From positions 1,550,001 to 1,614,000 of the forward strand of contig NZ_LT629737.1 in NCBI RefSeq assembly GCF_900104765.1: a stretch of DNA of 64,000 nt, in the 5' to 3' direction. Below the pieces are notes generated by a model. The model was not told the origin of the DNA. It saw nothing but the letters and a program-made list of their open reading frames with translations, and ran no database searches. Shown here piece after piece: positions 81-62,681 of the stretch. Positions within the stretch are counted from its first letter, which is position 1, and each line of letters opens with the position of its first letter. The stretch is from Gillisia sp. Hel1_33_143 (GTDB taxonomy: Bacteria > Bacteroidota > Bacteroidia > Flavobacteriales > Flavobacteriaceae). A program made the position numbers and the translations under genes.

Positions 81-1559
81 ATGAGTAAGAAACTAACTAC
101 ACGCCACGATAACTATTCTAAATGGTATAATGAGCTGGTTGTCAATGCCAATCTAGCCGAGAACTCAGCAGTGAGAGGTTGTATGGTCATTAAACCCTAC
201 GGATATGCTATATGGGAAAAAATGCAGGCAGAATTAGATTCAAAGTTTAAAGAAACTGGTCATGAAAATGCCTATTTCCCACTTTTTGTCCCTAAAAGTT
301 TATTTGAAGCAGAAGAGAAAAATGCAGAAGGATTTGCTAAAGAGTGCGCAGTAGTAACTCACTACAGGCTTAAAACCGATCCTGAAAATAGTTCTAAATT
401 AATTGTAGATCCAGATGCTAAGCTCGAAGAAGAACTTATTGTAAGGCCAACTTCAGAAGCAATTATATGGAATACCTATAAGGGATGGATCCAGTCTTAT
501 AGAGATCTGCCAATTTTGATCAATCAATGGGCTAACGTTGTGAGATGGGAAATGCGAACCAGATTGTTCTTAAGAACTGCAGAGTTTTTATGGCAAGAAG
601 GGCATACAGCGCATGCAACAAAAGCCGAAGCCATAGCAGAGGCAGAGCAAATGAATGATGTTTATGCAGAATTTGCAGAAAAGTTTATGGCTATTCCTGT
701 TATTAAGGGAACTAAGTCTGAGAATGAACGTTTTGCAGGTGCAGAAGAAACCTATTGTATAGAGGCCTTAATGCAAGATGGAAAAGCTTTACAAGCAGGT
801 ACATCTCACTTTTTAGGTCAGAATTTTGCTAAAGCTTTCGATGTTAAATTTGCATCTAAAGAGGGGAAACTAGATTATGTTTGGGCAACTTCTTGGGGAG
901 TATCAACCAGATTAATGGGGGCATTGATAATGACTCATAGTGATGATCAAGGCTTGGTGCTACCTCCAAACTTAGCTCCAATACAAGTGGTAATTGTACC
1001 TATTTATAAAGGAGATGAGCAATTAGCGCAAATTTCTGAGGTGGCCAATAAATTGGTAAAAGATCTTAGGGCAGTAGGGGTTTCTGTGAAGTTTGATGAC
1101 AGAGATACTCAAAAGCCGGGATGGAAATTTGCTCAATATGAATTGCAAGGAGTTCCAGTACGTTTAGCAATTGGTCCTAAAGATCTTGAAAAAGGAAGTG
1201 TTGAACTTGCCAGAAGAGATACTCTTACCAAAGAAACTGTTTCGCAAGAAGATGTGGTAGATAAGATTAAAGGTTTGATGACCGAAATACAGGACAGCCT
1301 TTTTGAGAAAGCTTTAAAATTTAGAGATTCACATATTACAGAAGTGGAAACTTTTGAAGCTTTTAAAGATGTTCTAGAAAATAAGGGAGGTTTTATTTCT
1401 GCTCACTGGGATGGAACTTCTGAAACTGAATTAAAGATAAAAGAGCTTACTAAAGCCACGATTAGGTGTATTCCTATAGATGGTAGTAAAGAAGCCGGGA
1501 AATGCGTTCTTACAGGGGAGTACTCTAATCAAAGAGTGTTATTTGCGAAGGCATATTAA
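81..1559 (+). CDS. proS: Prolyl-tRNA synthetase, short (archaeal/eukaryotic-like) type
   Basis: Charges tRNA-Pro with proline in the cytoplasm. The 492-residue length and the absence of the large editing insertion of the E. coli-type enzyme place it in the short ProS group common in Bacteroidota. The class II core is visible: a proline-binding stretch around [10 protein letters not shown] (about residue 240), the motif RPTSEAIIW (about 122), and an anticodon-binding domain from about residue 300 ([11 protein letters not shown]) with a C-terminal domain ending in KAY. The reading frame stays open upstream of the ATG to the window edge, but the conserved family start MSK..T.R...YSKWYNELV fits the ATG at 81. 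No promoter was recognised in the 80 bases upstream. High confidence. Confidence 0.97.
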
Positions 1560-1728
1560 AAAGGGTTTAAGGGGAAAGCTTACTTAGCAATGGTTAAGTC
1601 TTTCTCTTTGTTATTTGAAATAGTGGGTCAAAGAAATAATTTTGAAAAGTTTTTTTCAAATGTAAATTGCTGTATTTCTGAAGCTAAAGAATTAATTTGA
1701 AAATAATTCAGAAAAAATTACTTCAGCG

Positions 1729-1760
1729 TTTGTACGATTGAAAAATAGTTGTATTTTTGC
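1729..1760 (+). promoter_or_regulatory. Promoter of the tRNA-Glu pair
   Basis: TTTG at 1729-1732, a 19-bp spacer, then TATTTTTGC at 1752-1760. This matches the Bacteroidota housekeeping consensus (TTG, 17-23 bp, TAnnTTTG). It lies 21 bp upstream of the first tRNA-Glu. Confidence 0.8.
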
Positions 1761-1781
1761 ATCCGCATTAAAACAAATAAT

Positions 1782-1853
1782 GGTCCGTTCGTCTAGGGGT
1801 TAGGACGCATGGTTTTCATCCATGTAACAGGGGTTCGATTCCCCTACGGACTA
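1782..1853 (+). tRNA. tRNA-Glu (anticodon TTC), first copy
   Basis: A 72-nt cloverleaf. The acceptor stem GGTCCGT pairs with ACGGACT (one G-T wobble), with discriminator A. The anticodon stem CATGG/CCATG encloses the loop TTTTCAT with anticodon TTC. The T-arm is GGGG TTCGATT CCCC. The 3' CCA is not encoded. Confidence 0.97.
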
Positions 1854-1932
1854 CTAAGCAATTTTAAATTGCTAACATGTTCAGGTAAGAAGTTGAGTAG
1901 ATTTTTTACAAGTTCAAATTGAAATAAATAAT

Positions 1933-2004
1933 GGTCCGTTCGTCTAGGGGTTAGGACGCATGGTTTTCATCCATGTAACAGGGGTTCGATTCCCCTACGG
2001 ACTA
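1933..2004 (+). tRNA. tRNA-Glu (anticodon TTC), second identical copy
   Basis: Identical over all 72 nt to the copy at 1782. It follows after a 79-nt spacer with no promoter of its own that I can see, so both are probably cut from one transcript. The leader bases AAATAATG just before the gene resemble those before the first copy, consistent with a local tandem duplication. Confidence 0.97.
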
Positions 2005-2034
2005 CAATAAAAAATTAATTAAATAGTATTTGTA

Positions 2035-2283
2035 ATGGCAAATCATAAGTCAGCGTTAAAGAGAATCCGTAGCAATGAGGCCAAGCGTCTTAGAAACCGC
2101 TACCAACATAAAACTACTAGAAACGCTATCAAGAAATTGAAAGAGGCTGATAAGAAAGATGCAGAGACTTTATATCCATCTGTTATCTCTATGATCGATA
2201 AATTAGCTAAGAAAAATATCATTCATGATAATAAAGCTTCTAATTTAAAGTCTAAATTAGCTAAACACGTAGCAGCGCTTTAA
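2035..2283 (+). CDS. rpsT: 30S ribosomal protein S20
   Basis: Primary 16S rRNA-binding protein of the small subunit. The 82-residue product is highly basic and begins MANHKSALKRIR, the standard S20 start, with the repeated Lys/Arg helices of the family. Normal length for bacterial S20. It begins 31 nt after the second tRNA-Glu, so it may be read from the tRNA promoter; a TAGTATTTG just before the ATG resembles a -7 box but has one extra base. A clear terminator follows. Confidence 0.97.
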   Translation: MANHKSALKRIRSNEAKRLRNRYQHKTTRNAIKKLKEADKKDAETLYPSVISMIDKLAKKNIIHDNKASNLKSKLAKHVAAL

Positions 2284-2309
2284 GAAAGTCCTGTTGTATT
2301 AAGTATATT

Positions 2310-2344
2310 AACTGTTGTAAATATTTATTTGCAACAGTTTTTTT
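2310..2344 (+). terminator. Rho-independent terminator of rpsT
   Basis: Hairpin AACTGTTG (2310-2317) / CAACAGTT (2332-2339) followed by a run of T. Confidence 0.85.
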
Positions 2345-2367
2345 GTTATCTAAATTTTTAGAAATAG

Positions 2368-2400
2368 AAATCACTAAAGCGTTTGCTATGGTGATTTTTT
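2368..2400. terminator. Second hairpin between convergent rpsT and engB
   Basis: AAATCAC (2368-2374) pairs with GTGATTT (2391-2397), with a small inner AGC/GCT stem and a following T-run. It probably serves as a back-up terminator for rpsT; the A-run on the other side is weaker for engB. Confidence 0.55.
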
Positions 2401-2438
2401 AATTTTAAAATAGAGTGATGTGTATGTAAATGAAGGTT

Positions 2439-3044
2439 CTAGTTTCTTTGAAACTGAGAATTGATATTATCGATATAATTTAGAACTTCTTCTTGCCCAA
2501 GACCATTTTCGGAGGAGGTAACAAAGTATTCTGGCATTTCTGTCCAGGTCTCCAGCATTTTGGCTTTATAGTTTTCTACATTGCGATCTAAGGCGTTTGG
2601 CTTTAATTTGTCTGCCTTCGTAAAGATGATGCAAAATGGAATTCCATGCTCACCCAGATATTGCATAAATTCCATATCTATAGGCTGAGGTTCATGTCTG
2701 CTATCAATTAGCACAAATGCACAGATCATTTGTTCGCGTTGCTCGAAATAAGCAGTAATAAATTTTTGAAATGTTTTTTTGATACTTTTAGAAACTCTGG
2801 CATATCCATAGCCAGGAAGGTCTACCAAATGCCAATCTCCATTGATGAGGAAGTGATTTATAAGCTGCGTTTTTCCGGGTCTTCCAGAAGTTTTAGCTAA
2901 GCTTTTTCTGCTGGTGATCATATTGATCAAGGAAGACTTACCAACATTACTTCTACCAATAAATGCGTATTCCGGCAGGGAACTATTTGGGCATCTTGCA
3001 ACCTCGCTGTTGCTTATTACAAATTCAGCGGTTTTAATCTTCAT
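2439..3044 (-). CDS. engB: Ribosome biogenesis GTPase EngB (YsxC/YihA family)
   Basis: Small GTPase needed for late assembly of the large ribosomal subunit. The 201-residue protein shows the ordered G motifs: GRSNVGKSS (G1, about residue 31), a T in SGRPGKTQ (G2), DLPGYGYA (G3), TKADK (G4) and SSENG (G5). Length is typical. The start ATG lies 11 nt from the stop of the upstream hydrolase gene on the same strand, so the two are likely cotranscribed. Confidence 0.96.
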   Translation of the reverse strand: MKIKTAEFVISNSEVARCPNSSLPEYAFIGRSNVGKSSLINMITSRKSLAKTSGRPGKTQLINHFLINGDWHLVDLPGYGYARVSKSIKKTFQKFITAYFEQREQMICAFVLIDSRHEPQPIDMEFMQYLGEHGIPFCIIFTKADKLKPNALDRNVENYKAKMLETWTEMPEYFVTSSENGLGQEEVLNYIDNINSQFQRN

Positions 3045-3055
3045 CTTTGGTAATC

Positions 3056-3820
3056 TTAAAATTCTCTTTTCTGAAGCCAGTCAAAGAATAATTCATTAAA
3101 TAAATCTGGATGCTCCATCATAGCGGCATGTCCGCATTTGTCTATCCAGTAAAGGTCTGAGTCTGGTAAGAGTTTGTTGAAATCTTCTGCAACTTCTGGT
3201 GGAGTTACATTATCGTTCTTTCCCCATATTATACAAGTTGGAGTAGGCATATTTGGGAGATCTTTTGCCATGTTGTGTCTAATAGCGCTTTTTGCTATAG
3301 CTAGCGTTTTGATCAACTTATTTCTGTCTGTAACAGTAGTGTAAACTTCGTCTACAATTTCTTTTGTGGCTACTTCAGGATCGTAAAATACGTTTTGAGC
3401 TTTCTTCTTGATGAATTCATAATCTCCCCTACGTGGATAACTTTCACCCATTGCATTTTCATACAATCCAGAGCTTCCTGTTATAACCAGAGCTTTAACT
3501 AGTTCAGGATACATTTTTGTGCAAAGTAAAGCTATGTGTCCTCCTAAAGAATTACCAAGAAGTATCACTTCTTTATATCCTTTAAAATCTAAAAATTCTT
3601 TTATGAATTTCGCGAAATTCTGTACGCTAGTTTTAAGAAGTGGTCTGGAATATAATGGTAATTCTGGAATTAAAATCTTATATCCTTTCTCTGGGAAAAA
3701 GTCTACTACTCCATCAAAATTACTCAATCCGCCCATAAGTCCATGCAAAATAACTATCGGAGTACCTTCCCCTTTTTCTAGGTAGGTAAATTTCCCTTCT
3801 TGCTGTAAATTATGTTTCAT
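3056..3820 (-). CDS. Alpha/beta-fold hydrolase
   Basis: Cytoplasmic serine hydrolase of the alpha/beta fold (254 residues, no signal peptide). Visible elements are HGLMGG (oxyanion region, about residue 26), the nucleophile elbow GNSLGG (Ser about residue 93), an acid in GKNDNVTPP (about residue 203) and the catalytic His in CGHAAMMEHP (about residue 231). The substrate cannot be told from sequence; the family includes esterases and C-C hydrolases. It is first in a two-gene unit with engB, a pairing often seen in Flavobacteria. Confidence 0.88.
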   Translation of the reverse strand: MKHNLQQEGKFTYLEKGEGTPIVILHGLMGGLSNFDGVVDFFPEKGYKILIPELPLYSRPLLKTSVQNFAKFIKEFLDFKGYKEVILLGNSLGGHIALLCTKMYPELVKALVITGSSGLYENAMGESYPRRGDYEFIKKKAQNVFYDPEVATKEIVDEVYTTVTDRNKLIKTLAIAKSAIRHNMAKDLPNMPTPTCIIWGKNDNVTPPEVAEDFNKLLPDSDLYWIDKCGHAAMMEHPDLFNELFFDWLQKREF

Positions 3821-41973: not shown

Positions 41974-42243
41974 TTATTTTCTCAATCCTAATTCCTTAAC
42001 AATAGCACGATATCTCATGATATCTTTCTTCATTAAGTAATCAAGGAGTCTTCTTCTTTTACCTACTAGTAATACTAGAGATCTTTCTGTGTTATAATCT
42101 TTACGATTAGTTCTCAGGTGATCTGATAGGTGGGAAATACGGTGAGTAAATAATGCGATTTGCCCTTCAGCAGAACCGGTATCATTTTTACCTTTACCGT
42201 GTTTAGCGAATAGATCTTGTTTTTCTTCTATGGATAAATACAT
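41974..42243 (-). CDS. rpsO: 30S ribosomal protein S15
   Basis: Primary binder of the central domain of 16S rRNA. 89 residues, normal length; the family motifs LTHRISHLSDHLRTNRKDY-like helix (about 30-48) and RRRLLDYL are present. It is separated by a strong terminator from pnp. Confidence 0.97.
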   Translation of the reverse strand: MYLSIEEKQDLFAKHGKGKNDTGSAEGQIALFTHRISHLSDHLRTNRKDYNTERSLVLLVGKRRRLLDYLMKKDIMRYRAIVKELGLRK

Positions 42244-42296
42244 TCCAATATTAATTTTAATGATTTTTATGTATAAACAGATTTTCTGTCAAGCGG

Positions 42297-42304
42297 CAAA
42301 GATA
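42297..42304 (-). promoter_or_regulatory. Putative -7 box of rpsO
   Basis: The minus strand reads TATCTTTG, an exact TAnnTTTG. It would give a leader of about 48 nt. No TTG stands at the usual distance. Confidence 0.5.
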
Positions 42305-59988: not shown

Positions 59989-60074
59989 GCTCGGATGGTG
60001 GAATTGGTAGACACGTTGGACTTAAAATCCAATGATCAGCAACGGTCGTGCGGGTTCAAGTCCCGCTCCGAGTA
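59989..60074 (+). tRNA. tRNA-Leu (anticodon TAA)
   Basis: An 86-nt type II tRNA with long variable arm. Acceptor GCTCGGA / TCCGAGT, discriminator A. Anticodon stem TTGGA/TCCAA with loop CTTAAAA. T-arm GCGGG TTCAAGT CCCGC. It is the last host gene before the integrase. Confidence 0.97.
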
Positions 60075-60079
60075 CATTG

Positions 60080-60132: not shown

Positions 60133-61431
60133 ATGAAAAAGAAAAACGTACCTAGATTCGAACCTATAAATTCTCATCTTTCTATTGAGATCTCTATGGC
60201 GCAAAAGAGATATTCTGCACCTAAACTTTTTATTCCTCGGGTTAATGGTAAACCTACCGTAGCTCCGGGAAAACGCTGGTATGCCTATTTCTATTGGAGG
60301 ACCTCTCCCAATGGACCTTTAGATAGAAAATTCTCCTACACTAAGAAAATGAATAGGCTACCATCTGCCAAAGAGCGGAGAGCTGCCGGGAATCACCTGG
60401 TTTCTATTTTACATACTGCTTTAGAGCGAGGATGGATTCCGGATGCTGAAGAGCGTAAAGCTAAAAAAGTGGTGAAACGTGGAGACTCTATGATTCTTGC
60501 AGATGCTTTAAATTATGCCTATAAGATCAAGGCCAAGGGAGGTAAAAGCATTACTACACTTAAAGGGTATCAATTCCACAAAGACCGGTTCCTGGAATGG
60601 GCAAAGGCTAATGGGTATTATGGATTAAATCCGGATAGATTTAGCGTAGATCATTTTTATGAGTTCCTGGACTGGCTTCGATTTGAGTATGTAAATGAAA
60701 AAACCGGACTTGAAATGTCTGGATCTTCCATAAACAATCATAAGGCCAGCTTATCTGCTTTGTTTACCACTATGAAGAATGAGCGGCTTATTTCTGTAAA
60801 TTTCATCAAGGATATTCCTGATATAGATTCTGAACCGATAAATAATAAAGCCTTTACTCATGAGGAATTGGCACTCCTAAAAGCTGAAATGCAACGATCA
60901 GATCCATATCTTATCCCACTCTTTAGTTTTATATTATATCCATTACTCCGGCCCAGAGAAATTTGCAGATTAAAAGTAAATTCTTTGAATACCGACAATT
61001 GGCTGATCAAGGTGCAAACTAAAACTGAGATCTTGAGTGTAAGAAGAATTATTGACAAGCTTAAGCCCACTATTGAAGGCATGAAGCTTGAGGAATATCC
61101 TGGGGAATTCTACCTTTTTACCAATAGAGATCAACCTGCAGACTGGGACGCAAGTTTGCAGTCTCGCTACGATCATTTTTCTAAGCGTTTTAAAATTATA
61201 AAAGACAATTTGGGTTTTGGAAGAGAATATGGTTTGTATTCCGGACGACACACGGCAATTATGGATTTATATGATTCCCTTCTGGGCCAAGGATATGGAG
61301 AAATGAAAGCGCTGCTGGAGCTAATGCCACACACTACGCATAAAAGTGTAGCCGGTATTAAAGCTTATATAAGAAGACACCGCAAAACTATCCCTGCAGA
61401 TCATTCAGATCTTTTTACCATAGACTTCTAA
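60133..61431 (+). CDS. Tyrosine recombinase / integrase
   Basis: 432 residues. N-terminal arm (1-110) with a Lys-rich start, core-binding domain (about 115-230, DALNYAYKIKAKGGKSITTL), and a catalytic domain with R273 in LLRPREICRL, R372-H373 in YSGRHTAIMDL, and nucleophile Y412 in KAYIRRH. The first His of the usual HxxR motif is Tyr here (Y-S-G-R). It sits right after tRNA-Leu, the usual site for integrase-driven insertion. It may instead be an ICE integrase; family typing is not possible here. Confidence 0.88.
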   Translation: MKKKNVPRFEPINSHLSIEISMAQKRYSAPKLFIPRVNGKPTVAPGKRWYAYFYWRTSPNGPLDRKFSYTKKMNRLPSAKERRAAGNHLVSILHTALERGWIPDAEERKAKKVVKRGDSMILADALNYAYKIKAKGGKSITTLKGYQFHKDRFLEWAKANGYYGLNPDRFSVDHFYEFLDWLRFEYVNEKTGLEMSGSSINNHKASLSALFTTMKNERLISVNFIKDIPDIDSEPINNKAFTHEELALLKAEMQRSDPYLIPLFSFILYPLLRPREICRLKVNSLNTDNWLIKVQTKTEILSVRRIIDKLKPTIEGMKLEEYPGEFYLFTNRDQPADWDASLQSRYDHFSKRFKIIKDNLGFGREYGLYSGRHTAIMDLYDSLLGQGYGEMKALLELMPHTTHKSVAGIKAYIRRHRKTIPADHSDLFTIDF

Positions 61432-61455: not shown

Positions 61456-61463
61456 TATATTTG
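61456..61463 (+). promoter_or_regulatory. -7 box of the tRNA-like RNA
   Basis: TATATTTG, an exact TAnnTTTG. Transcription would start near 61469, exactly at the first base of the terminal stem of the RNA. No TTG -33 match. Confidence 0.55.
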
Positions 61464-61468
61464 AGTAT

Positions 61469-61585
61469 ATTCCTGCAACTTGACGAAGTAGAGCTATGTT
61501 CACCTTGGTAACGGTCGCAGTCTTTAAATAGGGGGAGATGTAAGCTAGGTTCGAATCCTGCCTTCCAGCTCTGCAGGAATTTTTT
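61469..61585 (+). ncRNA. tRNA-like structured RNA of unknown function
   Basis: Terminal stem ATTCCTGCA (61469-61477) / TGCAGGAAT (61572-61580), then T6. Inner stem AGAGCT (61490-61495) / AGCTCT (61567-61572), sharing base 61572 with the terminal stem. A T-arm is intact: AAGCTAGG / CCTGCCTT around loop TTCGAAT (61550-61556), with one C-C mismatch. The segment CACC-TTGGTAA-C-GGT (61501-61515) resembles the tRNA-Thr(GGT) anticodon arm but has an extra base. About 30 nt lie between this and the T-arm, and 7-8 extra nt lie between T-arm and inner stem. It is not a normal cloverleaf. Candidates are a degenerate phage tRNA, a tRNA mimic or a regulatory RNA. Confidence 0.55.
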
Positions 61586-61611: not shown

Positions 61612-61989
61612 ATGGATACAACAGAATTTAAAACCAAACTCGACAATAGAGAATTTTGGGGTGTTAATTCAGAAGAAATGTGGGAAGCTGCCAGAGAGTG
61701 GGAAATGCAATCTAATATAGATGTTAATATTTGCCAATGGAGCTGGGACTGTGGTTTAAAACTGGATTATGATGGAGATATTTGCAAAATCAGTTCTCGT
61801 TTTTATCCACCTCACAAACATGCTGCACCGGAAAAATGGTCTGGATCTATTTCTGTAATAATCGGTGATGAATATATTCACAATCATAAGGTAGAATCTG
61901 ATACTCTGGATATGCTAAAAATCACAGTTGAAAAATATGTTTCAACCATTCTAGATAAAATTAATTCCAATATTAAAGCAGCTTTTTAA
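61612..61989 (+). CDS. Hypothetical element protein, 125 residues
   Basis: Not recognised. An acidic cytoplasmic protein with several Trp residues (WSWDCG, EKWSGS), no signal peptide or membrane span. ATG 61612 is preferred; a GTG directly before it is in frame. Its stop overlaps the next start by 1 base (TAATG), so it forms a unit with the following gene. It lies in the accessory element. Confidence 0.65.
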   Translation: MDTTEFKTKLDNREFWGVNSEEMWEAAREWEMQSNIDVNICQWSWDCGLKLDYDGDICKISSRFYPPHKHAAPEKWSGSISVIIGDEYIHNHKVESDTLDMLKITVEKYVSTILDKINSNIKAAF

Positions 61990-62351
61990 TGGCAAAATCC
62001 AAATTCGATAATATTCTAGACGCTGCTCTTGGAATTTCAGGAGGCTACAATTTTCATGAAGCCTATCTCGATGAAGCAATGCAAATTAATGAAGAAAAGC
62101 TAAGGTTTTTGGAGAGGACTTCTAGATCTAAAATAGAATTCGAGAATGGCGGCTTTATTTCTTCTCATTCTGCAGATGATAAGAATGCCGGACGTGGATT
62201 ACGTCCATTTGTTCCGCATCCGTGCCAGGATGAAGAATTTGCTTTAAGCAAATTATTTCAAAAAATTGGAAGAGAGGATGCAAAAAAAGTAGACTTCAAA
62301 ATTTATGATGAAATATTCATGAGGACCTTAAAAAACAAGCGCTCTGAATAG
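61989..62351 (+). CDS. Hypothetical element protein, 120 residues
   Basis: Not recognised. A soluble protein with mixed charge; contains the stretch GRGLRPFVPHPCQDEEFAL in its middle and ends in Lys/Arg-rich KNKRSE. Translationally coupled to the preceding gene. Confidence 0.6.
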   Translation: MAKSKFDNILDAALGISGGYNFHEAYLDEAMQINEEKLRFLERTSRSKIEFENGGFISSHSADDKNAGRGLRPFVPHPCQDEEFALSKLFQKIGREDAKKVDFKIYDEIFMRTLKNKRSE

Positions 62352-62402: not shown

Positions 62403-62681
62403 ATGGCAAAAGTGAAGAATAGCAATCAAAATCCTGAATCTTTTACTATTTCCGTTACAGAAAAGGACGGCAGAAAGAGTGAAACAAAACACGTTACTGA
62501 AGATATCGTGAAATCATGGGATATAGATGCAGAGTTTGTCGCTTGTAATGAGGGCTACATTGATCGATTAAGAGAAGGTCTAAACAATAAATGCCAAACT
62601 TTATGTAGACCAATGGTTTTTCTTGACGAAAATGGAAATGAGCAAACAGTCTGGCAAAATATTGATGGCTCCTGGTCTTAA
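62403..62681 (+). CDS. Hypothetical element protein, 92 residues
   Basis: Not recognised. A small soluble protein starting MAKVKNSNQNPESFTISVTEKDG, possibly a small beta-rich fold. It ends 4 bp inside the convergent structural gene. Confidence as a real gene is moderate. Confidence 0.5.
   Translation: MAKVKNSNQNPESFTISVTEKDGRKSETKHVTEDIVKSWDIDAEFVACNEGYIDRLREGLNNKCQTLCRPMVFLDENGNEQTVWQNIDGSWS

What the first reader, a model, noticed from the sequence alone, without database searches (positions are those of the whole stretch)
61456..61585. A tRNA-like RNA with its own promoter and terminator inside an integrative element
The unit starts with an exact -7 box (TATATTTG), then a closed terminal stem of 8-9 bp whose 3' half runs into a T-run. 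Between them is a perfect tRNA T-arm loop (GG-TTCGAAT-CC) and a Thr-like TTGGTAA anticodon-type loop, but no canonical acceptor/T-arm spacing and a roughly 30-nt insertion in the variable region. It is not a simple decayed tRNA, since the terminal stem and promoter are intact. It could be a phage tRNA, a tRNA mimic that binds a tRNA-processing or anti-phage enzyme, or an RNA controlling element genes.
Basis: partly seen in the sequence, partly recalled or inferred. Interest (0 to 1): 0.75.

Follow-up and report, generated by a model that had tools for sequence, protein, structure and literature searches.

The report
Phage RNA with tRNA-like loops
A virus lying dormant in a bacterial chromosome carries a small folded RNA that copies two loops of a transfer RNA without being one; a second, distantly related virus carries the same fold, so it looks real and maintained, but what it does is not yet known.

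Summary
The feature is real and is not a tRNA. Window 61468-61582 (+) is a compact RNA of about 115 nt with a TATATTTG box upstream and a T-run at its 3' end. It lies between the integrase and small orphan genes of a 41.6-kb prophage in tRNA-Leu (57-bp att repeats). ARAGORN and Rfam do not recognise it. A model built from this sequence alone finds one relative, in another phage (100.7 bits, E=9e-23). That copy is 73.7% identical; all 67 comparable cells stay paired and 10 pairs changed on both sides, in five helices. RNAalifold gives nearly the same fold. This looks like a new, rare RNA family with two known members. Best guess for function, unproven: a trans-acting mimic of the tRNA elbow that binds a host or rival protein; a leader controlling downstream genes is the main rival. 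The same prophage holds two further tRNA-like RNAs, whose locus differs strongly between related prophages.

The parts
60020..60076 (+). attL, the 3' part of tRNA-Leu; left end of the prophage
   Evidence: 57-bp exact repeat at G000:C1:1651639; tRNA-Leu at 59989-60075
60133..61431 (+). tyrosine integrase of the prophage
   Evidence: PHROG integrase, E=3.6e-26; Pfam matches below cut-off
61456..61463 (+). TATATTTG, -7-type promoter box
   Evidence: sequence; same word before the L068 copy; no -33 element seen by eye
61469..61476 (+). P1 5' strand (closing stem)
   Evidence: pairs with 61573-61580; 5 of 8 pairs changed on both sides in L068
61478..61489 (+). hairpin ACTT-GACG-AAGT (CCTT-GACG-AAGG in L068)
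   Evidence: 1 of 4 pairs changed on both sides; also in RNAalifold fold
61490..61495 (+). P2 5' strand
   Evidence: pairs with 61567-61572; 1 pair changed on both sides, 1 on one side, 1 lost to a gap in L068
61497..61519 (+). P3, D-arm-like hairpin with loop TTGGTAAC (61505-61512)
   Evidence: core stem of 3 pairs, 2 changed on both sides; RNAalifold adds 3 unvarying outer pairs 61497-61499 with 61517-61519
61521..61532 (+). P4, 3-bp hairpin with 6-nt loop, in the place of an anticodon arm
   Evidence: 1 pair changed on both sides, 1 on one side
61533..61537 (+). P5 5' strand, stacked below the T-arm
   Evidence: pairs with 61562-61566; 4 pairs unvarying, 1 G-U/G-C
61544..61561 (+). T-arm GC-T-AGG [TTCGAAT] CCT-GC with bulged base 61546
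   Evidence: identical in L068 except the bulged base; pairs unvarying, so no covariation support
61562..61566 (+). P5 3' strand
   Evidence: see P5 5' strand
61567..61572 (+). P2 3' strand
   Evidence: see P2 5' strand
61573..61585 (+). P1 3' strand running into TTTTTT (possible terminator)
   Evidence: sequence; also in L068; not listed by the local terminator scan
61612..61989 (+). orphan ORF (125 aa from ATG) starting 26 nt after the T-run
   Evidence: no Pfam, PHROG or PADLOC match; 1 of 397 family genomes, the own one
61989..62351 (+). orphan ORF (120 aa)
   Evidence: no Pfam, PHROG or PADLOC match; no match in phages
62403..62681 (+). small ORF (92 aa), end of the cargo slot
   Evidence: only a PHROG match at E=0.065

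Best explanation
A phage-encoded structured RNA of about 115 nt whose D-arm-like and T-arm loops copy the tRNA elbow, while an anticodon arm, a tRNA acceptor end and CCA are missing. Shown: a fold conserved in two distantly related phages, non-tRNA architecture, and a cargo-like position that differs between the two phages. Inferred: that it is made as a separate transcript, that the two loops dock as in tRNA, and that it works in trans by occupying or tethering a protein that grips tRNA elbows (for example RNase P or Z, a tRNA-modifying enzyme, or a tRNA-targeting defence protein) to the benefit of phage or prophage. No partner is known.
For: Relative found at 100.7 bits by a model made from the window sequence alone; 10 pairs changed on both sides over five helices, fold recovered by RNAalifold. 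GG of the D-like loop and TTCGAAT of the T-loop are invariant in both copies, as a docking elbow needs (general tRNA knowledge). -7 box and T-run accompany both copies. The two phages share only diverged proteins (terminase-like 24%, two others 72% and 67%), and the RNA lies beside the integrase in one and behind the terminase-like gene in the other, with unrelated-looking neighbours, as expected of a self-contained unit.
Against: No expression data. Only two members, so the fold rests on one comparison; the T-arm pairs do not vary at all and the P5 pairs only by one G-U, so those helices have no covariation support. I drew the fold with both copies in view. In both copies an ORF starts 16-26 nt after the T-run, as a leader would have it. 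A local hairpin TCCTGC/GCAGGA before the T-run is possible in the window copy and would compete with the T-arm (by eye; not in L068). Two closest prophages by integrase lack the RNA.
Confidence: 0.42

Rival explanations
1. Cis-acting leader: the RNA is the 5' leader of the small ORF behind it and controls read-through at the T-run, for instance by binding the gene product or a tRNA-binding protein.
For: An ORF on the same strand begins 26 nt (window) and 16 nt (L068) after the T-run; no room for a second promoter between; box, fold and T-run in series as in attenuators.
Against: The downstream proteins (125 aa; 156 aa in L068) have no shared family and did not match each other in the all-against-all comparison. 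No conserved alternative pairing seen by eye.
Confidence: 0.22
2. Immunity or antisense RNA that host RNase P processes because it looks like a tRNA, in the manner of the phage C4 and M3 RNAs.
For: Phage C4 antisense RNA and M3 RNA are RNase P substrates (PMC11143913, passages); this RNA has a T-arm and lies near the integrase.
Against: Outside its own locus the RNA has no exact complement of 11 nt or more in the 47 kb of the L068 phage searched; in the window's prophage the only long one (16 nt) is the T-arm word shared with another tRNA-like RNA. Conserved loops point to protein contact rather than to a target.
Confidence: 0.12
3. A Y RNA-like tether for a Ro60-type ring protein.
For: GACGAAG in both copies fits the bacterial Y RNA motif GNCGAAN0-1G as I recall it (the paper was not held).
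Against: No TROVE (Ro60) protein in the own genome or in 4 of 4 phage records; GACG sits in a hairpin loop; the D-like arm precedes the T-arm, while YrlA is a circularly permuted tRNA (PMC11472068, passages).
Confidence: 0.06
4. A decayed or chance tRNA-like stretch without function.
For: Generic T-arm sequence; folding energy of the window copy no better than shuffles; absent from the closest prophages.
Against: Compensated pairs and invariant loops in a second phage.
Confidence: 0.04

Closest known systems
Transfer RNA (Rfam RF00005)
   Same: T-arm GG[TTCGAAT]CC; D-like loop with GG; three-armed core between paired ends
   Different: No ARAGORN or Rfam match; no 5-bp/7-nt anticodon arm, no CCA; T-arm bulged and standing on an extra helix P5; extra GACG hairpin and closing stem P1
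Bacterial Y RNA YrlA (tRNA-mimicking effector module)
   Same: Non-coding RNA that mimics tRNA with D- and T-like loops and lacks a free CCA end (partly recall); a GNCGAAG word (recalled motif)
   Different: YrlA is circularly permuted relative to tRNA; here D-like precedes T-arm; no Ro60 gene found
Phage C4 and M3 RNAs (RNase P substrates)
   Same: Small phage RNAs that look tRNA-like to a host enzyme
   Different: C4 is antisense; no antisense target found here; cleavage untested
tmRNA
   Same: tRNA-like T-arm without an anticodon arm
   Different: No tmRNA call or Rfam match; the short frame from ATG 61496 is broken by a stop after three codons in L068 (by eye)

Membership tests
tRNA | Match to a tRNA model | tested here: not met
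   ARAGORN none; Rfam none at gathering score, none at E<=10 on 191 bases
tRNA | Anticodon arm of 5 bp with 7-nt loop | tested here: not met
   P4 has 3 bp and a 6-nt loop in both copies
tRNA | T-arm directly followed by the acceptor strand and CCA end | tested here: not met
   P5 lies between T-arm and P2; no CCA; the 3' end is P1 and a T-run
tRNA | T-arm and D-loop sequence features | tested here: met
   TTCGAAT loop and GG in the D-like loop, in both copies
bacterial Y RNA / YrlA | Ro60 (TROVE) partner encoded in the genome | tested here: not met
   0 in own genome, 0 of 4 phage records; positive control rang; L068's host is unknown
bacterial Y RNA / YrlA | Circularly permuted order of the tRNA-like arms | tested here: not met
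   D-like hairpin precedes the T-arm; YrlA permuted (passages)
bacterial Y RNA / YrlA | GNCGAAN0-1G in the Ro60-binding helix (motif recalled) | tested here: inconclusive
   Word present in both copies, but in a hairpin, not in the closing helix
C4/M3-type phage RNA | Cleavage by RNase P | not testable with these tools
   needs an in vitro assay
C4/M3-type phage RNA | Antisense target in the phage (C4) | tested here: not met
   No exact complement of 11 nt or more in L068's phage; in the window's prophage only a shared T-arm word; imperfect pairing not tested
tmRNA | tmRNA model match and tag frame | tested here: not met
   ARAGORN and Rfam none; frame not kept in L068 (by eye)

The most novel reading that the evidence does not exclude
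Phages of Bacteroidetes carry a hidden class of anticodon-less tRNA mimics as arms-race cargo. One prophage holds three: the elbow mimic described here and two others whose locus is filled by strongly diverged tRNA-like RNAs in each related prophage. They serve as decoys for, or tethers to, tRNA-recognising host or defence proteins.
Probability: 0.25. Interest if true: 0.85.

Novelty: new variant of a known kind. Interest (0 to 1): 0.6.

Why it matters
It is a structured RNA family that no Rfam 15 model matches and that copies the tRNA elbow with an arrangement unlike the tRNA mimics compared here. If it binds tRNA-recognising proteins, it shows phages using RNA, not only proteins, against or through the host's tRNA machinery. 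It also warns that tRNA finders pass over phage RNAs of this type.

Tried and rejected
Rejected: real or decayed tRNA; Y RNA with Ro60 partner; an RNA tied to this integrase (no T-arm RNA with a good flanking stem in the integrase-neighbour loci L009-L037, and no model match there; none in L005/L006 or their whole records). Common origin with the two other tRNA-like RNAs of the prophage: they share a 16-nt T-arm word, but with the T-arm masked the similarity is not significant (890 of 1000 shuffles as good for the window copy, 47 of 1000 for L068). A first masked test was faulty because masked letters matched each other; discarded. A helper for local terminator hairpins looked only next to the T-run and missed TCCTGC/GCAGGA, which I name by eye.

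Searches without a further member: blastn in phages (24 records at E<=10, 20 listed, none covering 80% of the query), plasmids (1 record, 25 nt), L068's copy in phages (3 records, 19% covered); DNA in 16 genus genomes (2 match: own, and a 20-nt piece at the T-run) and 296 order genomes (29 match; all but own are pieces of 16-36 bases, mostly the T-arm); R1 in 246 order genomes (2 match: own, G417 at E=0.136); R2 in 395 phylum genomes (2: own, G930 at 24 bits) and 199 family genomes (1: own). These samples overlap. The weak matches L207 (G417) and L326 (G930) have no T-loop and count as chance; L282 (22.2 bits), L216 (20.7) and L315 (17.2) were not followed up. The own contig was in all five, L068 in the last four; the other loci were run against R2: 3 weak matches among 90 sources, 1 among 48 (both E<=1), 0 of 94 and 0 of 59 (E<=0.1).

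Led nowhere: AlphaFold models of the 125- and 120-aa proteins (mean pLDDT 54.9 and 43.9), too weak for a fold search, so none was run. Seven paper searches: I read the listings and saw nothing on this RNA; two papers were seen as passages only.

Full report
WHAT IS THERE. Window 61468-61582 (+) lies between an integrase (60133-61431; PHROG integrase) and three small ORFs without Pfam match. The integrase sits beside tRNA-Leu (59989-60075). A 57-bp stretch at the end of that tRNA (60020-60076) recurs 41.6 kb away at G000:C1:1651639, so the element is a prophage with both att sites. The same prophage is in IMG/VR (L004, contig of 40,530 bases). Relatives by integrase, L005 (77%) and L006 (67%; the same stretch is L007, Zunongwangia atlantica), carry other ORFs at this place and no such RNA. 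The place is therefore a variable cargo slot.

NOT A tRNA. ARAGORN calls five tRNAs in the window, none here. Rfam has no match at gathering level, and only a PyrG leader at E=4 when 191 bases are searched up to E=10. Folding energy is no better than shuffles (z -0.16, 83 of 200 as good), so folding alone would have dismissed the find.

THE SECOND COPY. A pattern scan of IMG/VR (GACGAAG..GGTAA..GTTCGANTC; 69 stretches) brought in L068, part of a 48.5-kb phage contig; ranked by flanking stem it came first. A covariance model whose two rows are the window sequence and its identical IMG/VR copy finds L068 with 100.7 bits, E=9e-23, among 19 sources. The copies are identical at 84 of 114 aligned bases. 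TATATTTG precedes both and a T-run ends both.

THE FOLD. The hand-drawn fold has 34 pairs in seven helices. On the model-fitted alignment all 67 comparable cells are standard pairs (one cell is a gap) and 10 pairs changed on both sides: five in P1, one in the GACG hairpin, one in P2, two in P3, one in P4. Shuffles average 5.0 and none of 500 reaches 10; slid versions give 0 or 1. I drew the fold with both sequences in view and the alignment was fitted to it, so these controls lean my way. RNAalifold, which predicts its own fold on that alignment, gives 36 pairs: the same helices less one P2 pair, plus three pairs that lengthen P3. The window copy's minimum-energy fold keeps 29 of 36 pairs in L068, and L068's keeps 27 of 33 in the window copy; the hand fold keeps 34 of 34 and 33 of 34. 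P5 and the T-arm vary too little to be tested.

READING OF THE PARTS. P1 closes the ends. A GACG hairpin follows. P2 encloses a D-arm-like hairpin with loop TTGGTAAC/TAGGTAAC, a 3-bp hairpin where a tRNA has its anticodon arm, and P5 topped by the T-arm GC-N-AGG[TTCGAAT]CCTGC. GG there and TTCGAAT in the T-loop are the residues that dock in a tRNA elbow (general tRNA knowledge); docking here is inferred. The T-run follows a long-range stem and the local terminator scan lists none here. In the window copy alone a local hairpin TCCTGC/GCAGGA with an 11-nt loop could precede the T-run and would compete with the T-arm (by eye).

CONTEXT. The two phages are distantly related: terminase-like protein 24%, a lysozyme-like protein 72%, another protein 67%. 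The terminase label rests on the window phage's 504-aa protein matching annotated phage terminases at 27%; L068's 568-aa relative has no PHROG match. L068's protein matches 47 phage records, mostly Porphyromonas, Flavobacterium and Cellulophaga, best 52%; the window's matches 41, best Polaribacter phage Leef_1 at 59%. Four named relatives (Leef_1, laban6-1, 6H, Ingeline_1) hold no copy (0 of 4). In L068 the RNA follows the terminase-like gene (1491-3197); a 156-aa ORF without family match starts at 3357. A 127-aa protein nearby has a sub-threshold match to Tad5, a Thoeris inhibitor (E=0.0048, 17.5 bits, cut-off 27). Different places and neighbours speak for an RNA that moves on its own. Against that, in both copies an ORF begins 16-26 nt after the T-run, which keeps the leader rival alive.

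HOW RARE. Outside the two copies nothing convincing was found: own only, or own plus one chance-like match, in 246 order, 395 phylum and 199 family genomes, samples that overlap. Among fetched loci: 3 of 90 and 1 of 48 sources gave weak matches at E<=1, 0 of 94 and 0 of 59 at E<=0.1. Large metagenome collections could not be scanned.

TWO MORE tRNA-LIKE RNAs IN THE PROPHAGE. On the minus strand at L328 15601-15465 and 15364-15267 (outside the window) lie two T-arm RNAs that ARAGORN does not call. Rfam scores the first 29.2 bits as tRNA (cut-off 29) and the second 35.4 bits as tRNA-Sec (cut-off 47). The second has plausible acceptor, D and T arms but an anticodon arm CCAG-ATA-CTGG (by eye; for the fold). 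Energy folding does not single them out (z 0.10 and -1.52). At the corresponding place, shown by flanking genes, relatives carry other, strongly diverged T-arm RNAs: two in L338, one of them called tRNA-Arg by ARAGORN, and one in L342. Rfam finds none of these at E<=0.1 in 35 kb. With the T-arm masked, the RNA of this finding shows no significant similarity to the first two.

WHAT IT MOST LIKELY DOES. An anticodon-less RNA with both elbow loops kept fits a molecule read by proteins that grip tRNA elbows; a phage could use it as decoy, tether or handle. This is inference and no partner is known. Rivals: a cis leader, an RNase P-processed RNA of the C4/M3 kind (PMC11143913, passages), and a Y RNA. 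The last fails two tested features: no TROVE protein and no circular permutation as in YrlA (PMC11472068, passages).

VERDICT. A genuine, rare, phage-borne structured RNA with tRNA-elbow loops that Rfam 15 does not know; function open.

Noticed in passing
L328:15465-15601 (-) and L328:15267-15364 (-), i.e. G000:C1:1647267-1647601, outside the window: Two further tRNA-like RNAs in the same prophage that ARAGORN does not call; the second has a truncated anticodon arm CCAG-ATA-CTGG.
   Followed up: partly
L338:15895-16220 (+) and L342:10630-10770 (-): At the corresponding locus in two related prophages lie strongly diverged T-arm RNAs (one called tRNA-Arg by ARAGORN), as if this locus evolves fast.
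   Followed up: partly
L042:322-437 (+): A phage contig with a tRNA-like RNA inside a very long closing stem and with a 3-nt 'anticodon' loop; z -7.09, Rfam tRNA 30 bits, no ARAGORN call. It is not a relative by model R2.
   Followed up: partly
L068:5475-5855 (-): 127-aa protein near the second RNA copy with a sub-threshold match to Tad5, a Thoeris inhibitor (E=0.0048, 17.5 bits, cut-off 27); PADLOC shows nothing.
   Followed up: no
window 42241-42304 (-): S15-Flavobacteria ribosomal protein leader (Rfam RF03161, 72.1 bits); ordinary, but it places the host among Flavobacteria.
   Followed up: no
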